Shown here: in pieces, positions 30 through 46,472 of the stretch
Layout of the letters: every line of letters begins with the position of its first letter
How positions within the stretch are numbered: the stretch's first letter is position 1
Assembly: GCF_000463015.1 (NCBI RefSeq)
Contig: NC_022234.1
Location: 1 to 64,000 of the forward strand
DNA from: Variovorax paradoxus B4
GTDB lineage: Bacteria > Pseudomonadota > Gammaproteobacteria > Burkholderiales > Burkholderiaceae_C
DNA: 64,000 nt
Direction: 5' to 3'
Made by a program: the position numbers and the translations under genes
The notes under the pieces: generated by a model
Database searches by the model: none
The model's input: the letters and a program-made list of their open reading frames with translations, nothing else
What the model was told of the DNA's origin: nothing

Positions 30-818
30 ATGGGCAACGTGGTCATCTTCGGCAACCAGAAGGGCGGCGTCGGCAAGTCCACGCTGGCGGTGCTGTACGC
101 ATGCTGGCTGGCCGATGTGCGACGCCGGTCGGTCTGCGTGATCGATCTGGACGCGCAGGCGAACAGCTCGAAATCGCTGAACCGGTCCTCGGTGATCACC
201 GAAGCGGTGGAACTGTTCGGTCCGGATCTGGGCCTGATCGCCCCGCCGCGCGAGCAGACCATTGCGCTGGCGGCGGGCAGCAGAAAGCTGGCCGACGTCG
301 AACTCGCGAGGGCGGACCTCGTGATTCCCTTGTTCCGCGGGAATGTGAGGCGCCTGGCGCAGGATTTCGACGCGGTCGTGATCGACACGCCCCCGGCGCT
401 GGGCTTGCGTATGAGCGCGGCGCTGATTGCCGGCCATGCGGTGGCCTGTCCGATCGAGCTGGAGGAGTACAGCATCGACGGCGTCGCCGACATGCTCCGG
501 ACCGTCTTCGGGGTCAGGCGGCGCTACAACCCGCAACTGCGGATGGCGGCCATCGTGCTGAACCGGTTCAATCCGCATTCGCTGCGGCAGAAGGCCGCGA
601 TGCAGGAGCTGGCCTTGAACTTTCGGGAGTTCGTGATACCGGCGCGGATATCGACCCGTTCGGCCATTCCCGAGGCGCTGGCCGCGGGGGTGCCCGTGTG
701 GCGGCTGCCCAAGAGCGCGGCACGCGAGGCGAGCCTCGAGGTGATGCGGGTGTTCGAGTTGCTGCAGCAACGCATCGACGGCTCGAAGGCGTCGATGCCG
801 GCGGATACGCAGGCATGA
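30..818 (+). CDS. incC: IncC/ParA-family partition ATPase
   Basis: A 262-residue ParA-type P-loop ATPase. In partition systems this enzyme binds DNA non-specifically in its ATP form and is stimulated by a ParB/KorB partner to move plasmid or chromosome copies apart. The deviant Walker A motif KGGVGKST is at residues 11-18, the A' aspartates in VIDLDAQ at 39 and 41, and Walker B VVIDTPP at about 116-122. The segment PIELEEYSIDG and the C-terminal GVPVWRLPKSAAREAS (from residue 220) resemble IncC of IncP plasmids more than chromosomal ParA or MinD. GAGGAG lies just before the ATG. The stop overlaps the start of the korB-like gene in ATGA, so the two are translationally coupled. The family assignment is firm; the symbol rests on remembered similarity. 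Confidence 0.88.
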   Translation: MGNVVIFGNQKGGVGKSTLAVLYACWLADVRRRSVCVIDLDAQANSSKSLNRSSVITEAVELFGPDLGLIAPPREQTIALAAGSRKLADVELARADLVIPLFRGNVRRLAQDFDAVVIDTPPALGLRMSAALIAGHAVACPIELEEYSIDGVADMLRTVFGVRRRYNPQLRMAAIVLNRFNPHSLRQKAAMQELALNFREFVIPARISTRSAIPEALAAGVPVWRLPKSAAREASLEVMRVFELLQQRIDGSKASMPADTQA

Positions 819-1714
819 GGGCGCCCGACGGCCTGGACCTGAGTGCGCTGTCGCAGTTCAGGGCGGCCGATCTGCTCACGGTCGAAGCCGCCCCTGCGGG
901 CCCAGGCGCACCGGCGCAGGTGGCGCTCGAACGCATCGACTTCGACCCCGGCCAGCCGCGCCGTCGCATGCGGGGCGAACGCATCGAGGAACTCGCCGAA
1001 TCGATCCGCGAGCATGGCGTGCTGGAGCCGGTGTCCCTGCGCTGCCATCCAGAGCACGCGCACCGGTACATCGTCAACCGCGGCGAGCGCAGGGTGCGCG
1101 CGGCGCGCCGGGCCGGCCTGTCCTGCGTTCCGGCGTTCGTGGACCCGCGGGTCGATCCCTTCGCGCAGGCGGCGGAGAACCTGCACCGTGACGACATGTC
1201 GCCGTTCGATCTGGCGGCCTTCATCGCCGAGCGGGAAGGGGAAGGCCATTCGCGCGCCGAGATCGCGCGCAGGTTGGGCAAACCGCGCTCCTTCATCACC
1301 GAGGCCGCGCGGCTCAGCGACGCACCGCGGCAGTTGCGGCAAGCGGTGGAGGAAGGGCGGCTCGGCGCGGATGTGCGGGTGCTCTACCAGTTGGTGGCCG
1401 TCGCGCGAGATCGCCCGCAGGAACTCCAGGAACTGATCGCGCGGGGCGGCCCGATCGGACGTGTCCAGACCAGGAGCCGCCCGCAATCGCCCGAGCCCGT
1501 CGGCGGCTCGGCGGCGCCGCCGCCCGGAAACGGGATCCCGAGGATCATCAGCGGCGGCCGTACGGTGCTGGTGGTCGAGCATGGAGGACGGCGCGGGTCC
1601 TTGCGCATCAAGGCGAAGGACGGCAACGTCGGCGAAGTCCGCTTCGGCGATGGCACGCGCGCCATGCTGCCGTTGGCGGACTTGCGGCTGGTGTGCTGGG
1701 CCACGGAGGAATAG
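815..1714 (+). CDS. korB: KorB/ParB-family partition and repressor protein
   Basis: A 299-residue ParB/Spo0J-family protein, partner of the ATPase just upstream. The N-terminal ParB/sulfiredoxin-like domain includes NRGERRVRAARRAG and the conserved box ENLHRDDMSPFDLA (residues 121-134). A helix-turn-helix follows at about 144-168 (AEIARRLGKPRSFI). After a proline-rich linker, residues 248-295 (starting VLVVEHGGRRGSLRI and ending LPLADLRLV) look like the SH3-like KorB C-terminal dimer domain, which chromosomal ParB lacks. KorB of IncP plasmids is both a partition protein and a global repressor. The start at 815 was chosen because ATG overlaps the upstream TGA; the frame stays open further upstream but lies inside incC. 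Confidence 0.85.
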   Translation: MRAPDGLDLSALSQFRAADLLTVEAAPAGPGAPAQVALERIDFDPGQPRRRMRGERIEELAESIREHGVLEPVSLRCHPEHAHRYIVNRGERRVRAARRAGLSCVPAFVDPRVDPFAQAAENLHRDDMSPFDLAAFIAEREGEGHSRAEIARRLGKPRSFITEAARLSDAPRQLRQAVEEGRLGADVRVLYQLVAVARDRPQELQELIARGGPIGRVQTRSRPQSPEPVGGSAAPPPGNGIPRIISGGRTVLVVEHGGRRGSLRIKAKDGNVGEVRFGDGTRAMLPLADLRLVCWATEE

Positions 1715-34509: not shown

Positions 34510-36210
34510 TCACTTTGCCGGCACAGCGTCTTCCCGCATGGCCTGCAGCTCGGCCGGCCGGCCGCCGCCTTCCAGGTACTTCCAGTACGCCACATAGCCC
34601 GACAGGTAATGCTCCACGTCGTCGATGCGCACGCGGAAGCTGTGGTGGCGGATGAACGAACTGCCCACGATGCGTGAGGGGTTCCTGAAGAACATCGCGA
34701 GCTCCGGCCAGAAGTGCCCCGTCAGCAGGTAGCGCGCACGCTGCTCCAGTGCACGGTAGAACTTCTCGATGTCGAAGCCTTCCAGCAGGTGCGCATGTGC
34801 GGCATCGGCCTGCAGGCGAACGATCATCTTCTGCGCCGCCATCATCAGCTCGAGCAGCGTCGGAAAGGTGGTGATGCGGTCGAGCACGAAGTCGAGGTGG
34901 CCGCGCACGTTGTCCAGGCCGAAGCGCAGGTAGCGCTCCTCGGGCCGGTAGAGCGTGAGCTCGTTGACGCAGTAGCTCAGCCAGTGGTCATGGGCTTCCC
35001 AATGCCGGGCCGCGATGAAATACTCGAACGCCTTCTCGACCGCTCGCAGCCAGCGCGGGTCGCGGGTCAGTCCGTACAGGCGCATCAGGCCGAAGGCGGC
35101 TTCGCCATCGTAGTAGATGATGCGGTTCTCTTCCTTGACGCCGAGGCCGGGATGGTTGAGCACGTGGACGAAGCGGCCCGTTGCCGGGTCCTGCATGTGA
35201 ACGATGCCCAGCGCCAGCTGCTCCAGCAGCGGCAGGTACTGCGTGTCGCCGGTGAGCTCGGTGTACTTGACCATGGCCAGCAGGCACACGGCATTGCCGC
35301 CCAGCTTGATCTCGTCGTCGATGTCGACGAGGAAGGCCGCTTGCTCGCCGCCCGGCAGGGTGATGCGCTGGATCAGCTTGCCGGTCAGGTGCGCCAGGGC
35401 CCGCTCGATGGCGGCCTTGTGTTCGGGCTGGCGCGTGAGCTCCCAGCCTTCGAGCAGCGCATAGGTCGAGCTCGCGTGGCGCAGCGCGTTGTAGGTGGGA
35501 ATGGCGCGGTCGAAGCAGGGAAACCAGCCGTAGTGATACGCGCCTGACGTCTTCACCTGGCGCGCCAGGTAGGCGGTGCTGGTTGCGGCGATGTCGCGTA
35601 CCCGGGCGGCATCCCACGCCGGCAGGTGCCGGTAGCCGCGGTTGCGCCCCTGGTGTTCGATGGCGTGAAGGCCCTTGCCGTCGATGAACACGGCCCGCGT
35701 GTCGAAGATCCAGACCGGCTGCTGCGCCTCGGTGGGCCAATGGAGTTCGCGCCCGTGGCGGTGCTTGCCATACAGCGCGAGGTTGACGGCGTTGGGCGTC
35801 GCTTCGGAAAAATTGCCGTCGTAGAGCACGGCATGCGCGCCGATCTCTTCCTCGAGCATGGCCACCGACAGCTCGGCGTCGAATGCGATGCCATGGCGAA
35901 AGTAATTGCGCTTGGTCGTCGCGAACGCCTGCTTCAGCGCCTGCCAGGTCATGGCGTGCACGGTATGCACCACGTCCACGCGCAGCCAGATGGGGGCGCT
36001 GTCCTGCTTGCGCAGCCACGCCTGCAGCAGCTGCGCGCCGCGGCGCCACACCTCGTCGAAGTTCTTGCCGCGGACCGTCACGACGTGGGCGCGCTCTTTT
36101 CCGTGGCACACCGACATGAAAAGAACGCCCGCAGCGGAAGCCTCCATGCACTCGGCCCATGTGGCGGCAAGCGCCGGCTTGGCCGAGGCCAGCAGTTCAC
36201 CCAGGGTCAT
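34510..36210 (-). CDS. Unrecognised 566-residue protein, toroid-like C-terminal half
   Basis: No confident family. Residues 1-200 form an alpha/beta region with [20 protein letters not shown] and [20 protein letters not shown]. Residues about 205-550 are helical repeats with aromatic-rich turns ([58 protein letters not shown]), the look of an alpha/alpha toroid as in glycan lyases, epimerases and six-hairpin glycosidases. No signal peptide is seen, so it acts in the cytoplasm. It is the last gene of a seven-gene operon with two nucleotidyltransferases, so it may process or transfer a sugar-derived group. That role is inferred. Confidence 0.6.
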
Positions 36211-36243
36211 GGCGCGTTCCTTTCGCCGTTTCGAACGGCGGCT

Positions 36244-36960
36244 TCATGGCCATTTCTTGGCGGCAGCTTCTTCATATTCCTGCGGGGTTCCGCAAAAGAC
36301 GATCTCGCTTCGGTCGATCAGTTCGTAGGCAACGCGTCCGCCGTTCTGGATCAGCAGGTTGTAGCAGGGTGCGACGTAATATTCGCCGCGATTCACGAGC
36401 TTGTTGGCCAGCTGGTGCTCATAGGCTTCGTTGAAGATGCGAGCATCGGCAAAGTGATAGAGGCCGTCGCTGCACAGGTTGGAGATGCGCTCCTTCTCGG
36501 TCGTCCGGAGCACCGCATGGCCGGGGCCGGGCTCCACGAACGACCAGTGATCGCCGTCGCCTTCGAATACCTCCAGGTAACCGAGCGCATCGGCGGCCAG
36601 CTCGGATTTTCTGAACCCCGGCCTGATGGTGTCGATGTTGAAGATGTACACGGGCTCGTCGGACCGAAGCTGCTGCAGCCCGCGGTAGACGGAGTCGGCC
36701 TGGCCGAGGGTGTCTCCTTCCAATTCGACGATGCGAAATTCCTTGACGCCCAGGTTCTTCAGCTCCTGCCTCAGGTACTCCGCAATCTCGTGATCGCGCC
36801 GCACCACGAAAAGAAAAAGGTCGTCCTGGAAGTAGTGCTCGAACGACTTCACGACGTGAAAGAAAACCGTATGGCCGTGCAGCGGCAGGCGGTATTTGGG
36901 CAACGCATAGCCGGCCTCCGTGAAGCGGCGGCTCTTGCCCATCATGGGAATGACAAACAT
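36244..36960 (-). CDS. Nucleotidyltransferase-like protein (capsule type)
   Basis: A 238-residue NTP-transferase fold. MFVIPMMGKSRRFTEAGYAL followed by PKYRLPLHG is the nucleotide-binding loop plus the conserved PK of sugar- or phospho-alcohol nucleotidyltransferases; YIFNIDTIRPGF supplies the metal-binding acid (D in NID). Such proteins make NDP-activated sugars or CDP-alcohols. Members of this subgroup occur in capsule loci beside small HAD phosphatases and kinase-like genes, exactly the context here. The start lies 3 bp after the upstream fusion gene stop. Nucleotide and acceptor unknown. Confidence 0.78.
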   Translation of the reverse strand: MFVIPMMGKSRRFTEAGYALPKYRLPLHGHTVFFHVVKSFEHYFQDDLFLFVVRRDHEIAEYLRQELKNLGVKEFRIVELEGDTLGQADSVYRGLQQLRSDEPVYIFNIDTIRPGFRKSELAADALGYLEVFEGDGDHWSFVEPGPGHAVLRTTEKERISNLCSDGLYHFADARIFNEAYEHQLANKLVNRGEYYVAPCYNLLIQNGGRVAYELIDRSEIVFCGTPQEYEEAAAKKWP

Positions 36961-36963
36961 CTT

Positions 36964-38523
36964 TCAGTGCTCCATTTGCTCGAACAGGCGCAATGCATTG
37001 GCAAGCATGGCGCGCTGGCGGCGCGGGTTGTCCTGGTGCAGCGGCAGCATGGACAGGAACAGCATCACGGTGACCGGCGCCACATGGCGCGCCGTCATGC
37101 CGTTCAGCAGGGGCAGGCCGGCAAACAGCTTCTGGATCGCGGCGGCGTCTTCGTCGGCGTGGATGCGCAGGTTGAAATCCAGCCCCGTGCCGTCGTCCAC
37201 ATCGAAGGCATCCGCGACGATGTAGTCGTACAGGCCGATCACCGAATGCGCGATCTTCGCGAGGTCGTAGCGCAGGTCGCCCAGCAGCCTGGGTTCGCCT
37301 CGGAAGTTGAGGCCGCGCGGGTCGATCACCTTGATGCAGTCCGAGCGCGTGTCGAACAGGATGTTGCTGAAGCACAGGTCGCCGTGCATCACGCCTGGCA
37401 CCAGCGGCACGCGCGCCGCGGCCTCGACGCAGCGCTGCAGCATGTCCGACAACGACGGCAGCGGCCGCCCGTTCAGGCGCGTGGGGGCCGAAAGGCTCAA
37501 GCCGCTGCTCGCGGCATAGGCATGCATGCGCTCGCGGGTCTTTTCCCCCAGCATTCCCCGGCTGTCCTCCTCCACCAATTGCCGCTCGCTCCCGGTCAGG
37601 GGCACGGCGGCCTGGCAGGCGCTGAGCCAGTCGGCCAGGTGCTTGAACACCCGGGACCAGAACGCCGTGGAGTTGCGGCCATGCACATACAGCTCGTTGA
37701 GCGGCGCCATGCACATGTATTCGAGCTCGTAGCCATACCCGTCCGAATCCACCTGGCCGTGGCTCAGCAATTGCGGCACATACACGCGCAGGCGGGAAGG
37801 CAATGCGTCGAACCACTGCGCCTCGGCCTTGATCTTTTCGGCGGGGCGGCCCGTCTTGCGGACGCGGCGGTCTCCGATCATCAAGTCGTTGAACGAGCGC
37901 TGCGTGGTGATCTGGGCCCGCGAGCGGTAGAAGGTGTTGACGTGGCCGAAGTCCGACCACTTCTCGGAGTGGATACGCTGCAGGTAGCAGGCCTCGTCAT
38001 AGGCGGACACGGCCTTCTCGAACGATCCGCGCGCGGCGACCAGGCACTTTGCCAGCCGGCTGACCGATTGAAACGCAAAGTAGCCGCACCAGACCCGCGC
38101 ACCGGCGCCCGAACCCTGGTCGACGTGCCAGTCGTAGTCGTCGGCCGACTCGGCCACGCAAAGGCAGTCCCAGGCGGCCGGAAGGTCGAGGATCAGCGTG
38201 TCGCCAAGGAGGATGCGAAGCCCCTCGTCGTAGGTGCCGACGGTGTTGATCGAGAAAAGCAGCGAATCGGCCAGGGTGAGGCCGTCGGGCACCCGCAGCA
38301 CCTGGATCGCCTGGGCCTCCAGCGCGCGCGCATCGCGGTGCGCGATGGTGTAGCTCTCGGGCAATGAGAGATAGATGCTCTCGGCCGGAAAGTGCGTGTG
38401 CAATACCGAGAGCTGCCGCAGGAACAGGCGGCGGTTGCCAACGGGCAGAAAGGCCGGCGGCAGGCGGCCGAATTCCGATTGCAGTTCGGAATCGACGTAG
38501 GCGGCGGAAGTGATGATGATCAC
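36964..38523 (-). CDS. Nucleotidyltransferase-kinase fusion protein
   Basis: A 519-residue two-domain protein. Residues 1-230 are a diverged NTP-transferase fold (LPPAFLPVGNRRLFLRQLSV, LLGDTLILDLP; the glycine-rich nucleotide loop is weak). Residues about 235-510 are a choline/aminoglycoside-kinase-like domain with the catalytic loop HGDLCFSNIL (H380, D382) and the metal-binding DPRG (D401). The order suggests phosphorylation of a small alcohol or sugar followed by nucleotidyl transfer, like a LicC-LicA combination in one chain. Its start overlaps the HAD gene stop in ATGA (38520-38523). Substrate unknown; the weak first domain may be non-catalytic. Confidence 0.75.
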   Translation of the reverse strand: MIIITSAAYVDSELQSEFGRLPPAFLPVGNRRLFLRQLSVLHTHFPAESIYLSLPESYTIAHRDARALEAQAIQVLRVPDGLTLADSLLFSINTVGTYDEGLRILLGDTLILDLPAAWDCLCVAESADDYDWHVDQGSGAGARVWCGYFAFQSVSRLAKCLVAARGSFEKAVSAYDEACYLQRIHSEKWSDFGHVNTFYRSRAQITTQRSFNDLMIGDRRVRKTGRPAEKIKAEAQWFDALPSRLRVYVPQLLSHGQVDSDGYGYELEYMCMAPLNELYVHGRNSTAFWSRVFKHLADWLSACQAAVPLTGSERQLVEEDSRGMLGEKTRERMHAYAASSGLSLSAPTRLNGRPLPSLSDMLQRCVEAAARVPLVPGVMHGDLCFSNILFDTRSDCIKVIDPRGLNFRGEPRLLGDLRYDLAKIAHSVIGLYDYIVADAFDVDDGTGLDFNLRIHADEDAAAIQKLFAGLPLLNGMTARHVAPVTVMLFLSMLPLHQDNPRRQRAMLANALRLFEQMEH

Positions 38524-38891
38524 TTCTCATGCTCCAGCAATCGGGCGATTTCTTCCTGGCTGTATTTCAGGAACTCCGAAGGACGGATGGCGCGGTCATC
38601 CACATAGAACCCTTCTTCGCCGCACCAGGGTTTGCCCACATGGATCTCGTCGTAGGGCACGTCATGGCGGCCCAGCCACTCGATGATGATCGGCAAGGTG
38701 TGGGCATTGATCTTTCCGATGTTGCCGGCAAAGCTGTTGACGTTGCGGCTGGTGTATATCGCGATGGAAAACCCCATCGCCTGATAGTTGCGGAGCCGAT
38801 CGATCATCTCCAGCCGCGGGCGGGCGTTTGCGTAGTCCTTTGCCTCCGCGATGCACAAGGTATGGTCCAGATCGAAGATCAATCGCTTCAA
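38520..38891 (-). CDS. Small HAD-superfamily phosphatase of capsule-locus type
   Basis: A 123-residue single-domain HAD protein with no cap: motif I FDLDHTL (D7, D9), motif II in IAIYTSRN, motif III K in HVGKPWC and motif IV in FYVDDRAIRP. Very short HAD enzymes like this recur in surface-polysaccharide loci next to nucleotidyltransferases and remove phosphate from a sugar-phosphate or polyol-phosphate intermediate. Its stop codon overlaps the fusion gene start, implying a tight functional link. Confidence 0.82.
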   Translation of the reverse strand: MKRLIFDLDHTLCIAEAKDYANARPRLEMIDRLRNYQAMGFSIAIYTSRNVNSFAGNIGKINAHTLPIIIEWLGRHDVPYDEIHVGKPWCGEEGFYVDDRAIRPSEFLKYSQEEIARLLEHEK

Positions 38892-38939
38892 TTCATTTGC
38901 CTCTGTTCTCGGAATATGGCTTTGCGGTCAACGGCATCT

Positions 38940-40028
38940 TCAGCCCGGAGATGCAGGATCGAGGGCCAGAAACCGAACGACCTCTGGCGTGGAGATCCGG
39001 AAGGAGCCCACGGCGCGCTGAACGGCCCGCATCAGGATCGGGTTGTTCGCGACGGAGCGCTGGTCTTCATTGGTCCATTGATTCGGCTGCCGGTTCTTTT
39101 CCCGCGTGACCTTGTCGTCGTCTTCATCGAGTTCCTGAAGAATCTTCAGCATCAGGGAATGTCCGCGCCAGACCTCGTCCCGGATCACCGGTGTTCCATC
39201 GGCAAACCTTCTGCTGCGCAATTCTGCGGGGATGATCATCGGCGCGTCCTGGCTCTTGGCGAGTTCGGCCAATCGGTTCCAGAAATGCCTCACGTCATAG
39301 GGATTCGGGTTGAGGAAAACCCGTTCGCTGAGCTCCTTCTGCGAGGAAGGAAGCGGGGTGCTCCACATTTCGCGATTGCGCTCGTTCTCCGCCAGAGTGA
39401 CCCATTCCGCCCATTTCGCCATGCCTTCGAGGAACCAGCTCGCGCGGAACATGGTGTAGCCGTACTGGTACAGGTGGAACAGCTCATGCGGGATGAGGTA
39501 GTCCTTCACCCGCTCATGATTTCCGCGCATTGTGGAATTGATGCCGATGGAGATCGAGCATCTGCCATCGCGGTTGCGGCTGCCGGGATAGCGGACCACG
39601 CCGGAGAAAGACAGCCCTCTTTTCTTCGCGTTCTCCTCGCTGTAGGTGCCGAAGTCCAGGAAGTCGATGTCGATGGATTCGGCGCGCCGAAACCTGGTGC
39701 TGCGCAGCGGGTCGCGAAAGCCGTTCCGGTTGAATATCTGGCGGACCGTGTCCAGGTGCAATGCCGCGTCCTCGACGATGTCGGGCACGCCGTTGCGATT
39801 CAGATCCACGTCGGTGTACAGCGCGTGCGGCCCTGACTGCGTGTAGAAAACCCGGATGCCGTTGAACTCGAACTTCTGCTCCAGTTTCAGCCTGTGCGGA
39901 TTCTTCGAGGCTCTGCATGCGGGTGCCTCTTGCAGGTCCTGCGCCAAAACTGCGGAAGTGGAGCTCAGTACACACGCGATCGCTCCGCCTGCGATCAGTT
40001 GCTTCCATGGCGATTTCTTGGCCGGCAT
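38940..40028 (-). CDS. Secreted HExxH metalloprotease-like protein
   Basis: A 362-residue exported protein: signal peptide at about 1-30 (KQLIAGGAIACVLSSTSAVL then AQ), then a domain with a calcium-loop-like DVDLNRNGVPDIVED and a zinc motif HELFH at 181-185 followed by E201 in FLEGMAKWAEW, the arrangement of gluzincin metallopeptidases. It resembles secreted putative metalloproteases known from myxobacteria and other soil bacteria. CAGGAG six bases before ATG 40028 fixes the start; the open frame upstream is shadow sequence. Presence of a secreted protease in a cytoplasmic glycan-like operon is unusual. Confidence 0.76.
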   Translation of the reverse strand: MPAKKSPWKQLIAGGAIACVLSSTSAVLAQDLQEAPACRASKNPHRLKLEQKFEFNGIRVFYTQSGPHALYTDVDLNRNGVPDIVEDAALHLDTVRQIFNRNGFRDPLRSTRFRRAESIDIDFLDFGTYSEENAKKRGLSFSGVVRYPGSRNRDGRCSISIGINSTMRGNHERVKDYLIPHELFHLYQYGYTMFRASWFLEGMAKWAEWVTLAENERNREMWSTPLPSSQKELSERVFLNPNPYDVRHFWNRLAELAKSQDAPMIIPAELRSRRFADGTPVIRDEVWRGHSLMLKILQELDEDDDKVTREKNRQPNQWTNEDQRSVANNPILMRAVQRAVGSFRISTPEVVRFLALDPASPG

Positions 40029-40090
40029 TGCTGCTCCTGTTGCATATCCTGCATGGCTCGCCAGGCGAGGCTCGATCAACGGACAACTCT

Positions 40091-41839
40091 TCAGTTCAGG
40101 GAATTCCAGAGCAACTTGTCCATCTCGCTCAGGGGCCCTGAAGGCAAGTCGGCACTCAACATTCTTTTGAGTTCCGCCCGGCCGTACGATGCCGCCGGCA
40201 TGGCTTCGGTCGGGTGGATGTCTTGCAGCGGCTCGCGCCGGACGCCCTGGAAGAGCAGGGCATGCGCCAGGGAGCAATGAGACCGCAGGCGCCTTGGAAA
40301 TCCGAACCATCCTTCCTCGGCGGCCTGTGTCTGAAGCGCAAGGGTATTGGCGTAGCAGCGCATGGAGTCGGCGGATCCGATGGCAAATTGATCCCCTGCA
40401 TAGAGGGTCTTCGTGATCATCAGGTTGTTGAAGTAGATCAGGCGCTGCTTGCGGCATTCCTCGGCCATCTTCATCCAGTCGGGCTTGCGCTCTCCACCCC
40501 GGAAGGCGCGGTCCGGCCGGATCCTGAGCACCAGGTCATAGGCCTCCCCATCCTCTTCCATCAGGCGGTGCGCCTCCCGGATCTTGTAGAACATCTTGCG
40601 CTGGTTGTTGGCGTCGTTCTCGAATTCAGGCCGTTGATGGCTTTCGATCACGACCTTCGCGTCGGTCCCGTAGACCGCCCGGATGTCCGATTCGCTCACG
40701 GTCGAGGAAACGGCCAGCAGCGAGAAGAAGTTTGGATAGGATTTCTTCAGGGCTTCCATGCCGTACAGGAATCCCGCCTGCTTGTAGGCCGCGGCAAATG
40801 GCGTGTACTTGAATATCCTGTCGACACCGTTGCCCGAGATCGGATCGGGAAGCCGCCAGCCGGTGTCCTCCCAGGTGTGCACAAAATATTTGACGCGATG
40901 CTCGTGTAGGTGGAGGTTTTTCCAGGTCTCGAAAGCCTTGGCGTATCCCCTCAACTGGCCCGAAACGCAAACGGCAATATTCAGGTGCTTTCTTGAAACC
41001 GTGACCGGGCGCCTGGCGTCGACGCAAAAGGCGCGCGCGATTCTTGCGCTGGACTGCGCCGGCCCGGCATGGCCGAGGGCGGGCGCCGGGTAAAGATCGT
41101 GTACCTGGTTGAGCACGCGGTCATAGACGGCGTGGTCCAGCAATGCATAGCCCAGGATCAGGAGGCGGCATATGGCCGCCTCGTTCAGGCAACGCACTCC
41201 TTTTTCATCCTGCAGCATCTCCAGGACGAAGCTTCTGAAGATCTCTACATTTTTCGGAAGGACGGTCTGGAAGAATTTGCACAGGACTTCATGGTTGTAC
41301 CGTTCGAGGAAATCGACCAGCGTTTCCTTGCCGATGTCTTCCCCGTAAGCTCGAAACCCCTCGATCGCCAGCATCAGGGCGGTCTTGTCCCGCGTGTTCT
41401 TGAAGGCCTTGTTTTCAATCAGCGGTCTGGCAACGTCCGCGGCACTCGTGTAGGTTGCGCCATGGTGCCGTTTGAGGCCTGCCAGGTAGGTGGCGAAGCC
41501 GAGGGGAGATGCATCGATCGTTTCCTCCAGCTTTCGCGCAAAGTGACCGATCTGCCCCACGATCAGTTGCGTGGATGCGATGTCGATCGCTTCGGAGTCC
41601 CTCTTCTCGAATGCGTCCTTCCATCGCCCGCTGGATCTCAATTCCAGCGCAGCGCTGGCGTTGCCCGAGAGGATCAGGCCGTCGTGGTATCTCGAAAGAA
41701 TGTCTTTCGCGAAGTCATGCCCAGCGTCCAGGGCACGGCGCAAGCGATACAGGCTCAGTTCCAGCTGGTCCGACTTGCTGAAGGCTTGCAGTTCCGCGTC
41801 CATGTCCGCGACGCAGCGCCATTCGTTGAAGCTGTCCAT
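40091..41839 (-). CDS. Glycosyltransferase-like protein of capsule-locus type
   Basis: A 582-residue cytosolic protein. The N-terminal half (1-280) is helical and unrecognised, with repeat-like pairs of helices. The C-terminal half starts NIAVCVSGQLRGYAKAFETW (GT-like, residues 287-306) with YFVHTWEDTGWRL at 318-330 and a later acid pair in LVLRIRPDRAFRGG (about 445-458). This signature set is found in uncharacterised sugar-transferase-like genes of capsule and lipopolysaccharide loci; the RPDRAF motif may be the metal-binding DxD equivalent. Donor and acceptor unknown. It is the second gene of the operon. Confidence 0.62.
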   Translation of the reverse strand: MDSFNEWRCVADMDAELQAFSKSDQLELSLYRLRRALDAGHDFAKDILSRYHDGLILSGNASAALELRSSGRWKDAFEKRDSEAIDIASTQLIVGQIGHFARKLEETIDASPLGFATYLAGLKRHHGATYTSAADVARPLIENKAFKNTRDKTALMLAIEGFRAYGEDIGKETLVDFLERYNHEVLCKFFQTVLPKNVEIFRSFVLEMLQDEKGVRCLNEAAICRLLILGYALLDHAVYDRVLNQVHDLYPAPALGHAGPAQSSARIARAFCVDARRPVTVSRKHLNIAVCVSGQLRGYAKAFETWKNLHLHEHRVKYFVHTWEDTGWRLPDPISGNGVDRIFKYTPFAAAYKQAGFLYGMEALKKSYPNFFSLLAVSSTVSESDIRAVYGTDAKVVIESHQRPEFENDANNQRKMFYKIREAHRLMEEDGEAYDLVLRIRPDRAFRGGERKPDWMKMAEECRKQRLIYFNNLMITKTLYAGDQFAIGSADSMRCYANTLALQTQAAEEGWFGFPRRLRSHCSLAHALLFQGVRREPLQDIHPTEAMPAASYGRAELKRMLSADLPSGPLSEMDKLLWNSLN

Positions 41840-41881
41840 TTCACGCTTCGGCGGATCGGCGCGTTCCGGCGGAGGCGCCGG

Positions 41882-42532
41882 TCATGCGGTCCGCTCTGCA
41901 GCGGCAGGCGCTTCCTGCAGCACGGGCAGCCGGGGCTCGGCGAGCATCGAGAAGTCGGGGCCCGGGCTCAGGCCCATCAACAGATGGACGCGATTGGAAG
42001 GCTCGTTGCTGCGATTGACCGCGCGATGGTTCAGGTCCACCCGCACCAGCCATGCAGAACCGTCGGCGGGCAGGTGCACGCTCTCGATACTGCCATCGGC
42101 ACGCTGCCACTCGAAGAAGCAATTGGAATTCGTGATGATGGGGATGTGCAGCCGCCATGTTTCCCTGAGCGCATCGGTGTGCAGCGGCATCTCTTCGCCT
42201 TCGCTCTCGAGCTGCATGATGCGGGCCCGGAAGTGCTCGATGCCGCGATGGTGCAGGCTCTCCATGACCTCGGCGAGGTAGCCCGTGCACACCTCGGTGG
42301 GCGTGACTCCCCGGCTGGGAGCGGCGGCCTGCGCCGTGGCGATGCGCCGGATGCCGTCCGCCAAGGTGCCGTCGCGGCTGGTGACGGCCCAGCCGATGTA
42401 GTCGACCCGGTTGTCCCGGTAGGGCACGGCCGGCTGCTGCTTGACATGGTCCAGGAAGTGGGCGCGGAGCTTATCCGGATCGACCTTGAAATCAGCCAAT
42501 CTCGCGAACATGACGTCTTTCGAGCGCTTCAT
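41882..42532 (-). CDS. Aspartyl/asparaginyl beta-hydroxylase-like 2-oxoglutarate oxygenase
   Basis: A 216-residue AspH-type Fe(II)/2-oxoglutarate oxygenase domain. MPLHTDALRETWRLHIPI gives the iron ligands H118 and D120, NHRAVNRS gives H169, and R181 in SNRVHLLMG is the 2-oxoglutarate anchor. Cytosolic bacterial members hydroxylate peptides or small amino acid derivatives, including in natural-product pathways. Start ATG 42532 is preceded by GAGAAG at six bases; a longer in-frame start at 42553 is possible. It is the first gene of the seven-gene operon, so it may act on the group that the kinase and nucleotidyltransferases later activate. Confidence 0.74.
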   Translation of the reverse strand: MKRSKDVMFARLADFKVDPDKLRAHFLDHVKQQPAVPYRDNRVDYIGWAVTSRDGTLADGIRRIATAQAAAPSRGVTPTEVCTGYLAEVMESLHHRGIEHFRARIMQLESEGEEMPLHTDALRETWRLHIPIITNSNCFFEWQRADGSIESVHLPADGSAWLVRVDLNHRAVNRSNEPSNRVHLLMGLSPGPDFSMLAEPRLPVLQEAPAAAERTA

Positions 42533-44536: not shown

Positions 44537-44906
44537 AGGTGTTGTGAATGAAAGAGTCATACGTTGAAGGCTTAGCCAGCTACGGCGGCCCCGAGTCATG
44601 CGTGCACATTCGTGAGGGTGTGGGCGAAGCGTTGACAGGGGTACGCGCGGGCCGGGTATCGAGCCGCGTAATACATGCCCCGCGGCGAGAGCTGCGGGTG
44701 GTCCGGGGTGCCGAGGCAGTAGGAGATTGCCGAAGGCCACACCGATGCTGCCGCTTTGGCGAGGTGGCATGGGACCCCGCGCGGTCAGAGACCCCGCGCA
44801 CGCGCGGAAACACCTTGCACGGAAACCGGGAGATCCCGCGTCCTTCTGCAACGCGCTGGGAAGCGTCGAGTGCAGAGCGCATCGTGAAGCCCAAGGGCGT
44901 ACGACG

Positions 44907-46415
44907 ATGAGCGATAGGAGCGGGAAGTCGGACTGCTGCGTAGTACCGAAGAAGCTGCCGAACAAGGCTGCGGGGGAAGCTCCTGCGGCGGCGGAGGCGG
45001 TGGAGGGAAGGCGGCAGGCCAAGGGAAATGCCATCGCGGCGCGCATGTCCCGCAGATCGGTGCGGGTCTATGACATGGGAACCGCGCTCGATGGCATACG
45101 ACAGACGGCAAAGGGCCGTCGTGGTGCGAGGTTCACTGGACTGCTGCACCACATCTACGCGGTCGAACGCCTTGAGGCGGCCTACCTTGCGCTCAAGCGC
45201 GACGCGGCCGCTGGGGTGGACGGCCAGACCTGGCAGGCGTACGGGCAGGACCTGGAGGGCAACCTCCTGGATCTGTCCGAACGGTTGGCCCGAGGGGGCT
45301 ACCGGCCCCAGCCTGTGAAGCGGGTGTACATCGACAAGGCCGACGGCAGCAAGCGCCCGCTGGGCGTGCCGGCGCTGGAGGACAAGCTCGTCCAGCGCGC
45401 CACGGTCGAAGTGTTGAACGCCATCTATGAGCAGGACTTCCTCGGGTTCAGCTACGGCTTCAGGCCCGGCAAGAGTGCGCACAACGCGCTGGATGCCGTG
45501 GCGGTAGGTGTGCACAGCAGACGAGTGAGCTGGATTCTCGATGCGGACATTGCCAAGTTCTTCGACACAATCGAAAGGGACTGGCTGGTGAAGTTCATCG
45601 AACACCGCGTGGCGGACACGCGCGTGGTGCGGCTGATCAAGAAATGGCTGCACGCGGGCGTGCTGGAAGAAGGCAGGCTGAGGCAAAGTGAGGTGGGTAC
45701 GGTTCAGGGTGGGAGCATCAGTCCGCTGCTGGCCAACATCTACCTGCACTATGCGTTCGACCTGTGGGTGAAGCAGTGGAGGGGGCGCCATGCCCGAGGC
45801 GACGTGATCGTCGTGCGTTACGCCGACGATTGGGTAGCCGGGTTCCAGTTCCGCGACGATGCCGAGCGCTTCCAGCGCGCGGTGGCCGAGCGGCTGGGCC
45901 AATTCGGGCTGAAGCTGCACCCCGAGAAGACGCGGCTGATCGAGTTCGGGCGCGTCGCCCGGGAGAATCGACGCCGCCGAGGACAAGGCAAGCCGCAGAC
46001 CTTCGACTTCCTGGGGTTCACGCATTGCTGCGGGACGACGAGGAAGGGCCACTTCATGGTCCTGCGGCTCACCAGTGCCAAACGCCTGCGAGCCAAACTG
46101 CAGGTGGTCAAGCTCGAACTCAGAAGGCGCATGCACCAACCCATCCCGGAGCAGGGCCAGTACCTGCGGGCGGTGGTGGCCGGGCATGCGCGCTACTTCG
46201 GCGTGCCGTGCAACGGCGCGCGGCTGAGGACATTCCGCTTCCAGGTCGCCGGGCTGTGGCATCGCACGCTGTGCCGCCGCAGTCAGAGCCATGGCCTGAC
46301 GTGGCGTCGAATGTATCGATTGATGGCGCATTGGCTGCCTGTTGCGAACATCTGCCACCCGTACCCGAACCAGCGTCTGATCGTCATGACCCAAGGCAGG
46401 AGCCGTATGCGGTAG
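44907..46415 (+). CDS. ltrA: Group II intron reverse transcriptase/maturase
   Basis: A 502-residue intron-encoded protein that aids splicing and retrohoming. RT blocks are complete: KRPLGVPALEDKLVQRAT, QDFLGFSYGFRPGKSAHNAL, DIAKFFDTIERDWL, TVQGGSISPLLANIYLH, and the catalytic YADD at 305-308. The maturase X region follows (about 390-500, GIIM domain-like WLPVANICHPYPNQR). No HNH endonuclease domain is seen at the C-terminus, so target-primed insertion probably uses nascent DNA strands. ATG 44907 has AAGGG upstream; the frame is open further up but that part belongs to the structured RNA. Confidence 0.93.
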   Translation: MSDRSGKSDCCVVPKKLPNKAAGEAPAAAEAVEGRRQAKGNAIAARMSRRSVRVYDMGTALDGIRQTAKGRRGARFTGLLHHIYAVERLEAAYLALKRDAAAGVDGQTWQAYGQDLEGNLLDLSERLARGGYRPQPVKRVYIDKADGSKRPLGVPALEDKLVQRATVEVLNAIYEQDFLGFSYGFRPGKSAHNALDAVAVGVHSRRVSWILDADIAKFFDTIERDWLVKFIEHRVADTRVVRLIKKWLHAGVLEEGRLRQSEVGTVQGGSISPLLANIYLHYAFDLWVKQWRGRHARGDVIVVRYADDWVAGFQFRDDAERFQRAVAERLGQFGLKLHPEKTRLIEFGRVARENRRRRGQGKPQTFDFLGFTHCCGTTRKGHFMVLRLTSAKRLRAKLQVVKLELRRRMHQPIPEQGQYLRAVVAGHARYFGVPCNGARLRTFRFQVAGLWHRTLCRRSQSHGLTWRRMYRLMAHWLPVANICHPYPNQRLIVMTQGRSRMR

Positions 46416-46472
46416 CTCCGCACGTACGGATCTGTGGAGGGGGTGCTGGGTGACTGGCATTCCTACTCCTAC
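46400..46472 (+). ncRNA. Group II intron domains V and VI
   Basis: Domain V begins GAGCCGTATGCGG at 46400 and closes with CCGCACGTACGGATC, the near-invariant catalytic hairpin with its AGC triad. Domain VI is the stem GGAG-GGGG-TGC with GCA-TTCC-T-A-CTCC, giving a bulged adenosine for branch formation a few bases before the 3' end. Confidence 0.85.

What the first reader, a model, noticed from the sequence alone, without database searches (positions are those of the whole stretch)
34510..42532. Seven-gene operon for an unknown activated-group pathway
A tight minus-strand operon (gaps 3-62 bp, one ATGA overlap) encodes AspH-like oxygenase, capsule-type GT-like protein, secreted HExxH protein, small HAD phosphatase, nucleotidyltransferase-kinase fusion, second nucleotidyltransferase and a toroid-like protein. 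Kinase plus nucleotidyltransferases plus phosphatase point to making an NDP-linked small group; the oxygenase and toroid protein would modify it. No flippase, polymerase, ABC exporter or sugar-nucleotide dehydratase is present, so this is not an ordinary capsule locus. This is the best candidate in the window for an undescribed system.
Basis: inference. Interest (0 to 1): 0.78.

Follow-up and report, generated by a model that had tools for sequence, protein, structure and literature searches.

The report
Operon likely decorating acidic-repeat adhesins
A seven-gene set in a soil bacterium appears to be an accessory kit that chemically decorates a giant surface adhesin made of long aspartate-alanine repeats, using a relative of a staphylococcal adhesin-glycosylation protein together with a swappable set of chemistry genes.

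Summary
The seven genes are real and tightly packed. Six other Variovorax genomes have them in the same order: two complete, three without the HAD gene, one without HAD and toroid. It is a toroid with a predicted AGE-epimerase-like barrel, homologous to staphylococcal gtfC: two published gtfC primers lie in one S. haemolyticus toroid gene with 0 and 1 mismatches. GtfC, with GtfD, is needed for full glycosylation of Ser-Asp repeats in Pls. Asp-Ala or Ser-Asp tracts lie within 9 kb of the toroid in 22 of 25 toroid loci, in 0 of 37 control loci. In Variovorax, toroid and repeat adhesin coincide in 53 of 55 genomes with either. AspH, HExxH protein and toroid recur as a core; the genes between them vary (none, MurF-like ligase, SdgA/B-like glycosyltransferase, or the window's set). 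My reading: the operon hydroxylates Asp in the adhesin repeats and attaches an NDP-activated group, in trans. Shown: homologies, co-occurrence, cassette swapping. Inferred: substrate, hydroxylation, the group. No adhesin is linked to the operon.

The parts
41882..42532 (-). Gene 1, AspH-like Fe(II)/2OG oxygenase, 216 aa (core gene)
   Evidence: PF05118 24.8 bits, cut-off 22.6; H118, D120, H169, R181, H183 invariant in 9 sequences; nearest solved sequence a beta-hydroxylase 7v4f, weak, E 0.015
40091..41839 (-). Gene 2, helical N-terminal part plus GT-A fold transferase-like domain, 582 aa (cassette gene)
38940..40028 (-). Gene 3, secreted-looking HExxH gluzincin-like protein, 362 aa (core gene, two sequence types)
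   Evidence: H179, E180, H183, E199 invariant in 8 sequences; 65-74% identity to three from loci with the gene 2/5/6 cassette, 35-37% to four without
38520..38891 (-). Gene 4, HAD phosphatase of the EcbF/BcbF type, 123 aa (cassette gene, optional)
   Evidence: TIGR01689 186 bits, cut-off 162; solved relative 1xpj; present in 3 of 7 Variovorax cassettes
36964..38523 (-). Gene 5, nucleotidyltransferase-like N-terminus fused to APH-family kinase, 519 aa (cassette gene)
   Evidence: PF01636 36.2 bits, cut-off 23.2, residues 222-425; 1888 homologues among 7997 candidates scored, a few of them with precomputed PF00483; N-terminal part of the window protein read from sequence, no family match
36244..36960 (-). 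Gene 6, nucleotidyltransferase, 238 aa (cassette gene)
   Evidence: PF12804 30.6 bits, cut-off 27; solved relative 4evw, E 7e-63
34510..36210 (-). Gene 7, GtfC-family toroid, 566 aa (core gene)

Best explanation
The operon is an accessory, in-trans modification cassette for T1SS-exported adhesins with long Asp-Ala dipeptide tracts. Working model: (1) the GtfC-family toroid engages the acidic dipeptide repeats in the cytoplasm [family membership shown; engagement inferred]; (2) the AspH-like oxygenase hydroxylates Asp side chains, giving the Ala-Asp repeats, which have no hydroxyl, an O-linkage handle [inferred]; (3) the kinase/nucleotidyltransferase fusion, the second nucleotidyltransferase and, where present, the HAD phosphatase make an NDP-activated small group [inferred from families]; (4) the GT-A protein (gene 2) transfers it to the repeats [inferred]; (5) the adhesin is exported and the secreted HExxH protein processes or trims the decorated adhesin outside [inferred from co-variation with cassette type]. 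Other strains replace the cassette genes by a MurF-like ligase, an SdgA/B-like glycosyltransferase, or nothing.
For: Gene 7 is 35-39% identical to seven staphylococcal toroid genes. In one of them (S. haemolyticus L130) the published gtfC primers GtfC-F and GtfC-R lie with 0/26 and 1/23 mismatches, shuffled ones with 7 or more. GtfC with GtfD is needed for full Pls glycosylation (PMC5230774, section 10 read). An acidic dipeptide tract lies within 9 kb in 22 of 25 toroid loci from Pseudomonadota and Bacillota, 0 of 37 control loci. Partner matches repeat: pure Ser-Asp loci 4 of 4 with an SdgA/B-like GT; Ala-containing tracts 0 of 18 with such a GT, 11 of 18 with a MurF-like or ATP-grasp ligase. 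Variovorax: toroid and adhesin coincide in 53 of 55 genomes having either, of 101. Window-type toroid in 9 genomes, all with the adhesin-linked toroid class. 50 of 51 adhesin regions examined carry a tract. The host genome has two such adhesins, one on the window's contig. Cassette swapping around AspH/HExxH/toroid. Independent fusions tie the pieces: toroid+CapA, gene-2-like+CapA, toroid+MurF, toroid+GT4.
Against: No dipeptide tract lies near the window operon or its relatives (0 tracts in the window and the other window-type loci), and no adhesin or T1SS gene was recognised there, so the substrate link is by family, nesting and co-occurrence. Nesting of the window-type toroid (9 of 54 vs 0 of 47, p 0.0025) is not corrected for phylogeny. 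The SdgA/B-like GT case in Variovorax is weak: 1 of 3 Ser-Asp genomes, p 0.06. Two A. baumannii loci and A. rudis have a toroid but no tract in the stretch held, though A. rudis and one A. baumannii locus have an adhesin beside it. A third gtfC-named primer, GtfC-mutR, matched no toroid gene (6-8 of 24 mismatches, at or near the shuffled level), and GtfC-F/GtfC-R match other staphylococcal toroids less well (0-9 and 3-7). GtfC's own catalytic role is unknown; AGE catalytic residues were not mapped. One relative (G044) keeps the operon without its toroid. The HAD/NTK/NT trio is otherwise seen in capsule-type loci. The adhesin query contains the low-complexity tract.
Confidence: 0.6

Rival explanations
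1. The operon decorates a surface glycan (capsule or LPS). The HAD/kinase/nucleotidyltransferase trio makes an NDP-group used by gene 2 on a polysaccharide made elsewhere; toroid and AspH tailor that glycan.
For: The trio recurs in loci with capsule-type genes: Phaeobacter L047 and E. coli plasmid L049 with CDP-glycerol glycerophosphotransferase and export genes, Caballeronia L050 with ABC transporter and glycosyltransferase genes. In Phaeobacter a gene-2 homologue lies next to the trio inside such a locus. TIGR01689 is a capsule phosphatase family.
Against: No export, polymerase or sugar-nucleotide dehydratase family among the seven. Toroid, AspH and HExxH persist when the trio is absent (L097, L098, L099, L058). 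Of 25 toroid loci 22 have an acidic repeat tract nearby; trio-only loci have none.
Confidence: 0.2
2. The operon modifies a different secreted or surface protein, for example the HExxH protein itself, with the toroid borrowed from the adhesin system.
For: The HExxH protein is encoded inside the operon and its sequence type tracks the cassette. No adhesin is linked.
Against: The HExxH protein has no acidic dipeptide tract (window: 0 tracts). All 9 genomes with a window-type toroid, and G044 with the toroid-less operon, are adhesin-positive.
Confidence: 0.12
3. A loose assemblage of unrelated genes moved together, without a joint function.
For: Set found at two different genomic sites; HAD and toroid each missing in some relatives.
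Against: Order kept in seven genomes at about 63-99% protein identity to the window genes; AspH-HExxH-toroid core recurs with other cassettes.
Confidence: 0.05

Closest known systems
Pls-GtfC-GtfD of MRSA (and SdrC/D/E-SdgA-SdgB)
   Same: gtfC is a gene of the same family as gene 7; a dedicated system for acidic dipeptide repeats of a large surface adhesin; modification made by cytoplasmic enzymes (last point recalled)
   Different: Repeats are Ser-Asp with HexNAc; GtfC works with a predicted glycosyltransferase, GtfD. The window has AspH, HExxH, a GT-A protein and an NDP-group cassette, Asp-Ala repeats in the host's adhesins, and no linked adhesin
Paracoccus denitrificans BapA (891 Asp-Ala repeats, T1SS)
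   Same: Asp-Ala adhesin exported by T1SS; runs above 300 kDa against 212 kDa predicted, and its authors could not exclude a modification (PMC5588039, abstract and passages seen)
   Different: No modification genes mentioned in the passages seen; whether it has a toroid was not tested here
HAD-kinase/nucleotidyltransferase-nucleotidyltransferase trio of capsule-type loci (EcbF/BcbF type)
   Same: Genes 4-6 match the trio, which is adjacent in most loci fetched
   Different: There it lies beside capsule-type genes; here beside AspH, HExxH and the toroid
Collagen hydroxylysine glycosylation (lysyl hydroxylase plus COLGALT1)
   Same: Fe/2OG hydroxylase plus GT-A transferase on a repetitive protein; COLGALT1 is the top structural match of gene 2, tied with others. 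Analogy only; the pathway is recalled
   Different: Eukaryotic, Lys not Asp; no homology claimed

Membership tests
GtfC family (toroid) | Sequence homology to staphylococcal gtfC | tested here: met
   tblastn 35-39% to seven staphylococcal toroid genes; gtfC primers GtfC-F 0/26 and GtfC-R 1/23 mismatches inside the toroid gene of L130, GtfC-mutR not matched. The S. aureus COL GtfC sequence itself was not fetched
GtfC family (toroid) | Gene near an acidic dipeptide-repeat adhesin | tested here: not met
   Met by 22 of 25 family loci but not by the window copy (0 tracts in 64 kb)
GtfC family (toroid) | Needed for full repeat glycosylation | not testable with these tools
   Experiment seen for Pls only (PMC5230774)
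AGE epimerase superfamily | (alpha/alpha)6 barrel | tested here: met
AGE epimerase superfamily | Catalytic histidine pair of epimerases (recalled) | not tested
   Residues not superposed; family has its own invariant H, D, E, R set; no sequence match in PDB
Aspartyl/asparaginyl beta-hydroxylase PF05118 | Score above curated cut-off and conserved metal/2OG residues | tested here: met
   24.8 vs 22.6 bits; H118, D120, H169, R181 invariant in 9; their role is recalled
EcbF/BcbF capsule phosphatase TIGR01689 | Score above curated cut-off | tested here: met
   186.3 vs 162 bits
MXAN_6640 HExxH family NF045524 | Score above curated cut-off | tested here: not met
   59.9 vs 140 bits
Capsule biosynthesis locus | Export or polymerase genes in the locus | tested here: not met
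   None among the seven by Pfam/NCBIfam; the rest of the window was only gene-called
SdgA/SdgB adhesin glycosyltransferases | SdgA/B match among the operon proteins | tested here: not met
   No match among the seven at E 0.1; found, below the curated cut-off, in L098, L044, L048, L133, L136

The most novel reading that the evidence does not exclude
Bacteria hydroxylate aspartate residues along a secreted Asp-Ala repeat fibre and then hang an NDP-activated, possibly phosphodiester-linked, group on the new hydroxyl: a bacterial counterpart of collagen hydroxylysine glycosylation, part of a wider GtfC-toroid code in which repeat composition (Ser-Asp or Ala-Asp) is matched to partner chemistry (glycosyltransferase, amide ligase, or hydroxylase plus nucleotide cassette).
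Probability: 0.3. Interest if true: 0.88.

Novelty: new variant of a known kind. Interest (0 to 1): 0.72.

Why it matters
It gives a family to a protein (GtfC) whose mechanism the paper read does not explain, links the Ser-Asp adhesins of staphylococci with the Asp-Ala adhesins of soil bacteria, and predicts that the long 'naked' Asp-Ala fibres are in fact chemically decorated. That would bear on why P. denitrificans BapA runs at more than 300 kDa instead of 212 and how so acidic a protein mediates adhesion. The predictions can be tested in non-pathogens.

Tried and rejected
Capsule-pathway reading tested through neighbours of the HAD/NTK/NT trio: real for the trio, does not explain toroid, AspH or HExxH. 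Literature searches for EcbF/BcbF, TIGR01689, VC0232, 1XPJ, 4EVW and a capsule phosphatase listed nothing on the trio's product; a fructose-activation idea (passages of PMC7901785 and PMC11924219) was dropped. Searches for Mur ligase with T1SS adhesins (15 of 92 papers listed), Asp-Ala repeats (7 of 7), SdrF/Mur ligase (10 of 164) and GtfC/GtfD (10 of 10) showed, among the papers listed, none joining the toroid with Mur ligases or Asp-Ala adhesins; unlisted papers were not seen, and PMC7029136, which names GtfC and GtfD, was not read. Passages of PMC4850167, PMC8360574 and PMC8561734 describe GTs beside Sdr-type adhesins, not the toroid. Paracoccus Pxm (PMC13235738, abstract and passages) is unrelated. 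The SdgA/B-GT/Ser-Asp match in G038 first looked decisive; with 50 adhesins it is 1 of 3, p 0.06. Sequence search of toroid and HExxH profiles against PDB: nothing convincing. VIA tables show only what Foldseek ranked; absence there is no evidence.

Rows dropped: one search left out weak partial toroid hits (L034-L036, L061-L065 and the stretch L108), the broken copy L043, the fragment L123, and Variovorax window-type and unlinked-class loci (used as controls together with trio loci; two control loci, L014 and L105, are the same genome). Plasmid loci were picked by eye to spread organisms: 18 of 52 non-Variovorax records. Several toroid loci are near-duplicates (staphylococci, Rhizobiaceae, Variovorax), so p values overstate independence. 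Not examined for a tract: adhesins of G007, G022 and G763.
Full report
What is there. The window is the start of a 1.35 Mb contig of a 7.15 Mb, two-contig Variovorax genome close to V. beijingensis. Seven complete minus-strand frames at 42532-34510 are confirmed with gaps of 42, 62, 48, -4, 3 and 33 bp. Families: AspH-like oxygenase (over the Pfam cut-off), GT-like, secreted-looking HExxH (below its family cut-off), HAD phosphatase of the EcbF/BcbF type (over cut-off), a nucleotidyltransferase-like/APH kinase fusion (NTK), a nucleotidyltransferase (NT) and a toroid without any Pfam or NCBIfam family at E 0.1. The flanks are an amidase and an amidohydrolase.

Co-occurrence. In six of these seven AspH, GT-like, HExxH, NTK, NT and toroid keep the same order; the seventh (G044) lacks the toroid at the locus. 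The HAD gene is present in three of seven (G000, G726, G014). The set sits between amidase and amidohydrolase in two genomes and at another site, beside a different conserved pair of genes, in the other five. In the genomes outside the genus fetched, the HAD-NTK-NT trio or part of it recurs: Acinetobacter, Streptomyces, Roseomonas, Sphingomonas, Phenylobacterium and others. Three plasmid loci with the trio have capsule-type neighbours.

Acidic dipeptide tracts. Nine of eleven adhesin loci first looked at carry long Asp-Ala or mixed Asp-Ala/Ser-Asp tracts in the annotated or open frames (Klebsiella pieces not counted among the eleven; that locus has a Ser-Asp tract outside the annotated pieces). 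A scan for eight or more units found a tract in 22 of 25 toroid loci, 0.2-8.9 kb from the toroid, and in 0 of 37 control loci (758 kb; window-type and unlinked-class Variovorax loci and trio-only loci). The three misses are A. rudis and two A. baumannii loci. Tract type tracks the partner: pure Ser-Asp loci (L044, L048, L133, L136) 4 of 4 with a GT whose best NCBIfam match is SdgA or SdgB, below the curated cut-off; Ala-containing tracts 0 of 18 with such a GT, 10 with a MurF-like ligase, one with ATP-grasp ligases, seven with no partner seen (the loci are not all independent).

Link to an experiment. In MRSA, gtfC lies immediately after pls and encodes a 538-residue protein that CAZy does not call a glycosyltransferase; with gtfD it gives full glycosylation of Pls, while gtfD alone gives weak (strain COL genes) or no (strain 1061 genes) glycosylation; the sugars are N-acetylhexosaminyl residues in the Ser-Asp repeats (PMC5230774, section 10 and passages read). 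Two published gtfC primers lie inside the toroid gene of S. haemolyticus L130 with 0/26 and 1/23 mismatches, and one lies in S. aureus L051 with none; shuffled primers have 7 or more in L130. A third, GtfC-mutR, matched nowhere clearly better than shuffled primers (6-8 mismatches), and a primer named for gtfD, GtfD-mutF, matches the 3' part of the L130 toroid gene exactly, which fits two convergent neighbours. The 538-residue toroid of S. haemolyticus L131 lies immediately after a gene labelled pls. So gtfC is, in my judgement, a toroid-family gene; the COL protein itself was not compared. The name 'glycosyltransferase' does not fit the predicted fold.

Variovorax. Of 101 genomes, 54 have a toroid and 54 the adhesin found beside the MurF-fused toroid (the query holds the tract); 53 have both (Fisher 1.6e-26). 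G737 (adhesin only) has a short adhesin without tract; G028 (toroid only) has it on an 11 kb contig with transposase-like frames. I sorted toroids into three classes by identity to the window copy: a class in 53 genomes, mostly in frames of about 1050 aa, with the repeat adhesin close by in the 12 genomes examined; a class in 50 genomes, all adhesin-positive, mostly in frames of about 1600 aa, two of which were scanned and hold CapA and MurF-like domains; and the window type in 9, all with the first class (p 0.0025, no phylogenetic correction). Of 51 adhesin regions examined 50 carry a tract: 43 Asp-Ala, 3 Ser-Asp, 4 mixed; the exception is G737. The host genome has two such adhesins, one on the same contig as the window (about C1:730-733 kb).

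Core and cassettes. AspH, HExxH and the window-type toroid recur together: alone (G761, G017), with an SdgA/B-like GT (G038), with a MurF-like ligase (V. paradoxus SPNA7 plasmid, at the same amidohydrolase flank as the window), or with GT-like, NTK, NT and sometimes HAD (the window and relatives). AspH stays 69-77% identical to the window copy in eight relatives across cassettes, but HExxH splits into two types, 65-74% within and 35-37% outside the NTK cassette. HExxH therefore follows the chemistry, as expected for a protein that handles the decorated product. In G038 the core-plus-GT operon lies about 17 kb from a Ser-Asp adhesin, but that GT is absent from the two other Ser-Asp genomes, so this is suggestive only (p 0.06).

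Most likely mechanism. Ala-Asp repeats offer only carboxylates. MurF-like partners could amidate them; an Asp hydroxylase could instead create a hydroxyl, on which gene 2 could place an NDP-activated group made by NTK/NT(/HAD). The toroid would recognise the acidic repeat in every case. Shown: homologies, co-occurrence, cassette swapping, gtfC kinship. Inferred: substrate, hydroxylation, transfer, role of HExxH. Against: no tract or recognised adhesin at window-type loci, uncorrected phylogeny, one operon without toroid, three toroid loci without tract, and the trio's capsule associations.

Verdict. Observation confirmed; interpretation partly supported. The closest known system is Pls/GtfC/GtfD. 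The window is a new variant: hydroxylase plus nucleotide cassette, probably acting in trans on Asp-Ala adhesins. P. denitrificans BapA, with 891 Asp-Ala repeats and an anomalous apparent mass for which its authors could not exclude a modification (PMC5588039, abstract and passages seen), shows that the predicted modification addresses an open question.

Noticed in passing
window 44553-46472 (+): Group II intron: catalytic RNA parts (RF02005 166 bits, RF00029 45 bits) and reverse transcriptase frame 45000-46415 (PF00078 130 bits), a little past the operon's right flank.
   Followed up: partly
L103:8696-13549, L101:5432-10162: Toroid, CapA (PGA_cap) and MurF-like ligase in one protein of about 1600 aa; in L103 the CapA part resembles the lasso-peptide epimerase MslH, far below cut-off. 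Toroids of this identity class occur in 50 of 101 Variovorax genomes; only these two were scanned for domains.
   Followed up: partly
L043 (G000 C1 about 1241.0-1242.4 kb): A broken toroid copy near frames that look like transposases, on the window's contig.
   Followed up: no
L122 (G737): Adhesin locus cut short: 639 aa frame, no tract, no toroid, and frames that look like polysaccharide genes beside it.
   Followed up: no
L133, L136 (S. epidermidis plasmids): SdrF or an SdrD-like adhesin, then a toroid, then a convergent SdgB-like GT: the pls-gtfC-gtfD layout beyond SCCmec.
   Followed up: partly
L128:9968-14950 (Agrobacterium pAt): Toroid fused to several ATP-grasp domains resembling YheCD and cyanophycin synthetase, a few kb after a BapA-type adhesin with 250 Asp-Ala units.
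   Followed up: no
L012, L013, L015-L017, upstream of AspH: A conserved small secreted-looking gene (111-119 aa) precedes AspH in five relatives; it is not among the frames called in the window.
   Followed up: no
L054, L135 (A. baumannii): Toroid with a CapA-like stretch downstream and, in L054, a T1SS-target adhesin upstream that lacks a dipeptide tract.
   Followed up: no
window 30-1714 (+): ParA- and ParB-like frames at the contig start, fitting a second replicon's partition locus; read from sequence only.
   Followed up: no
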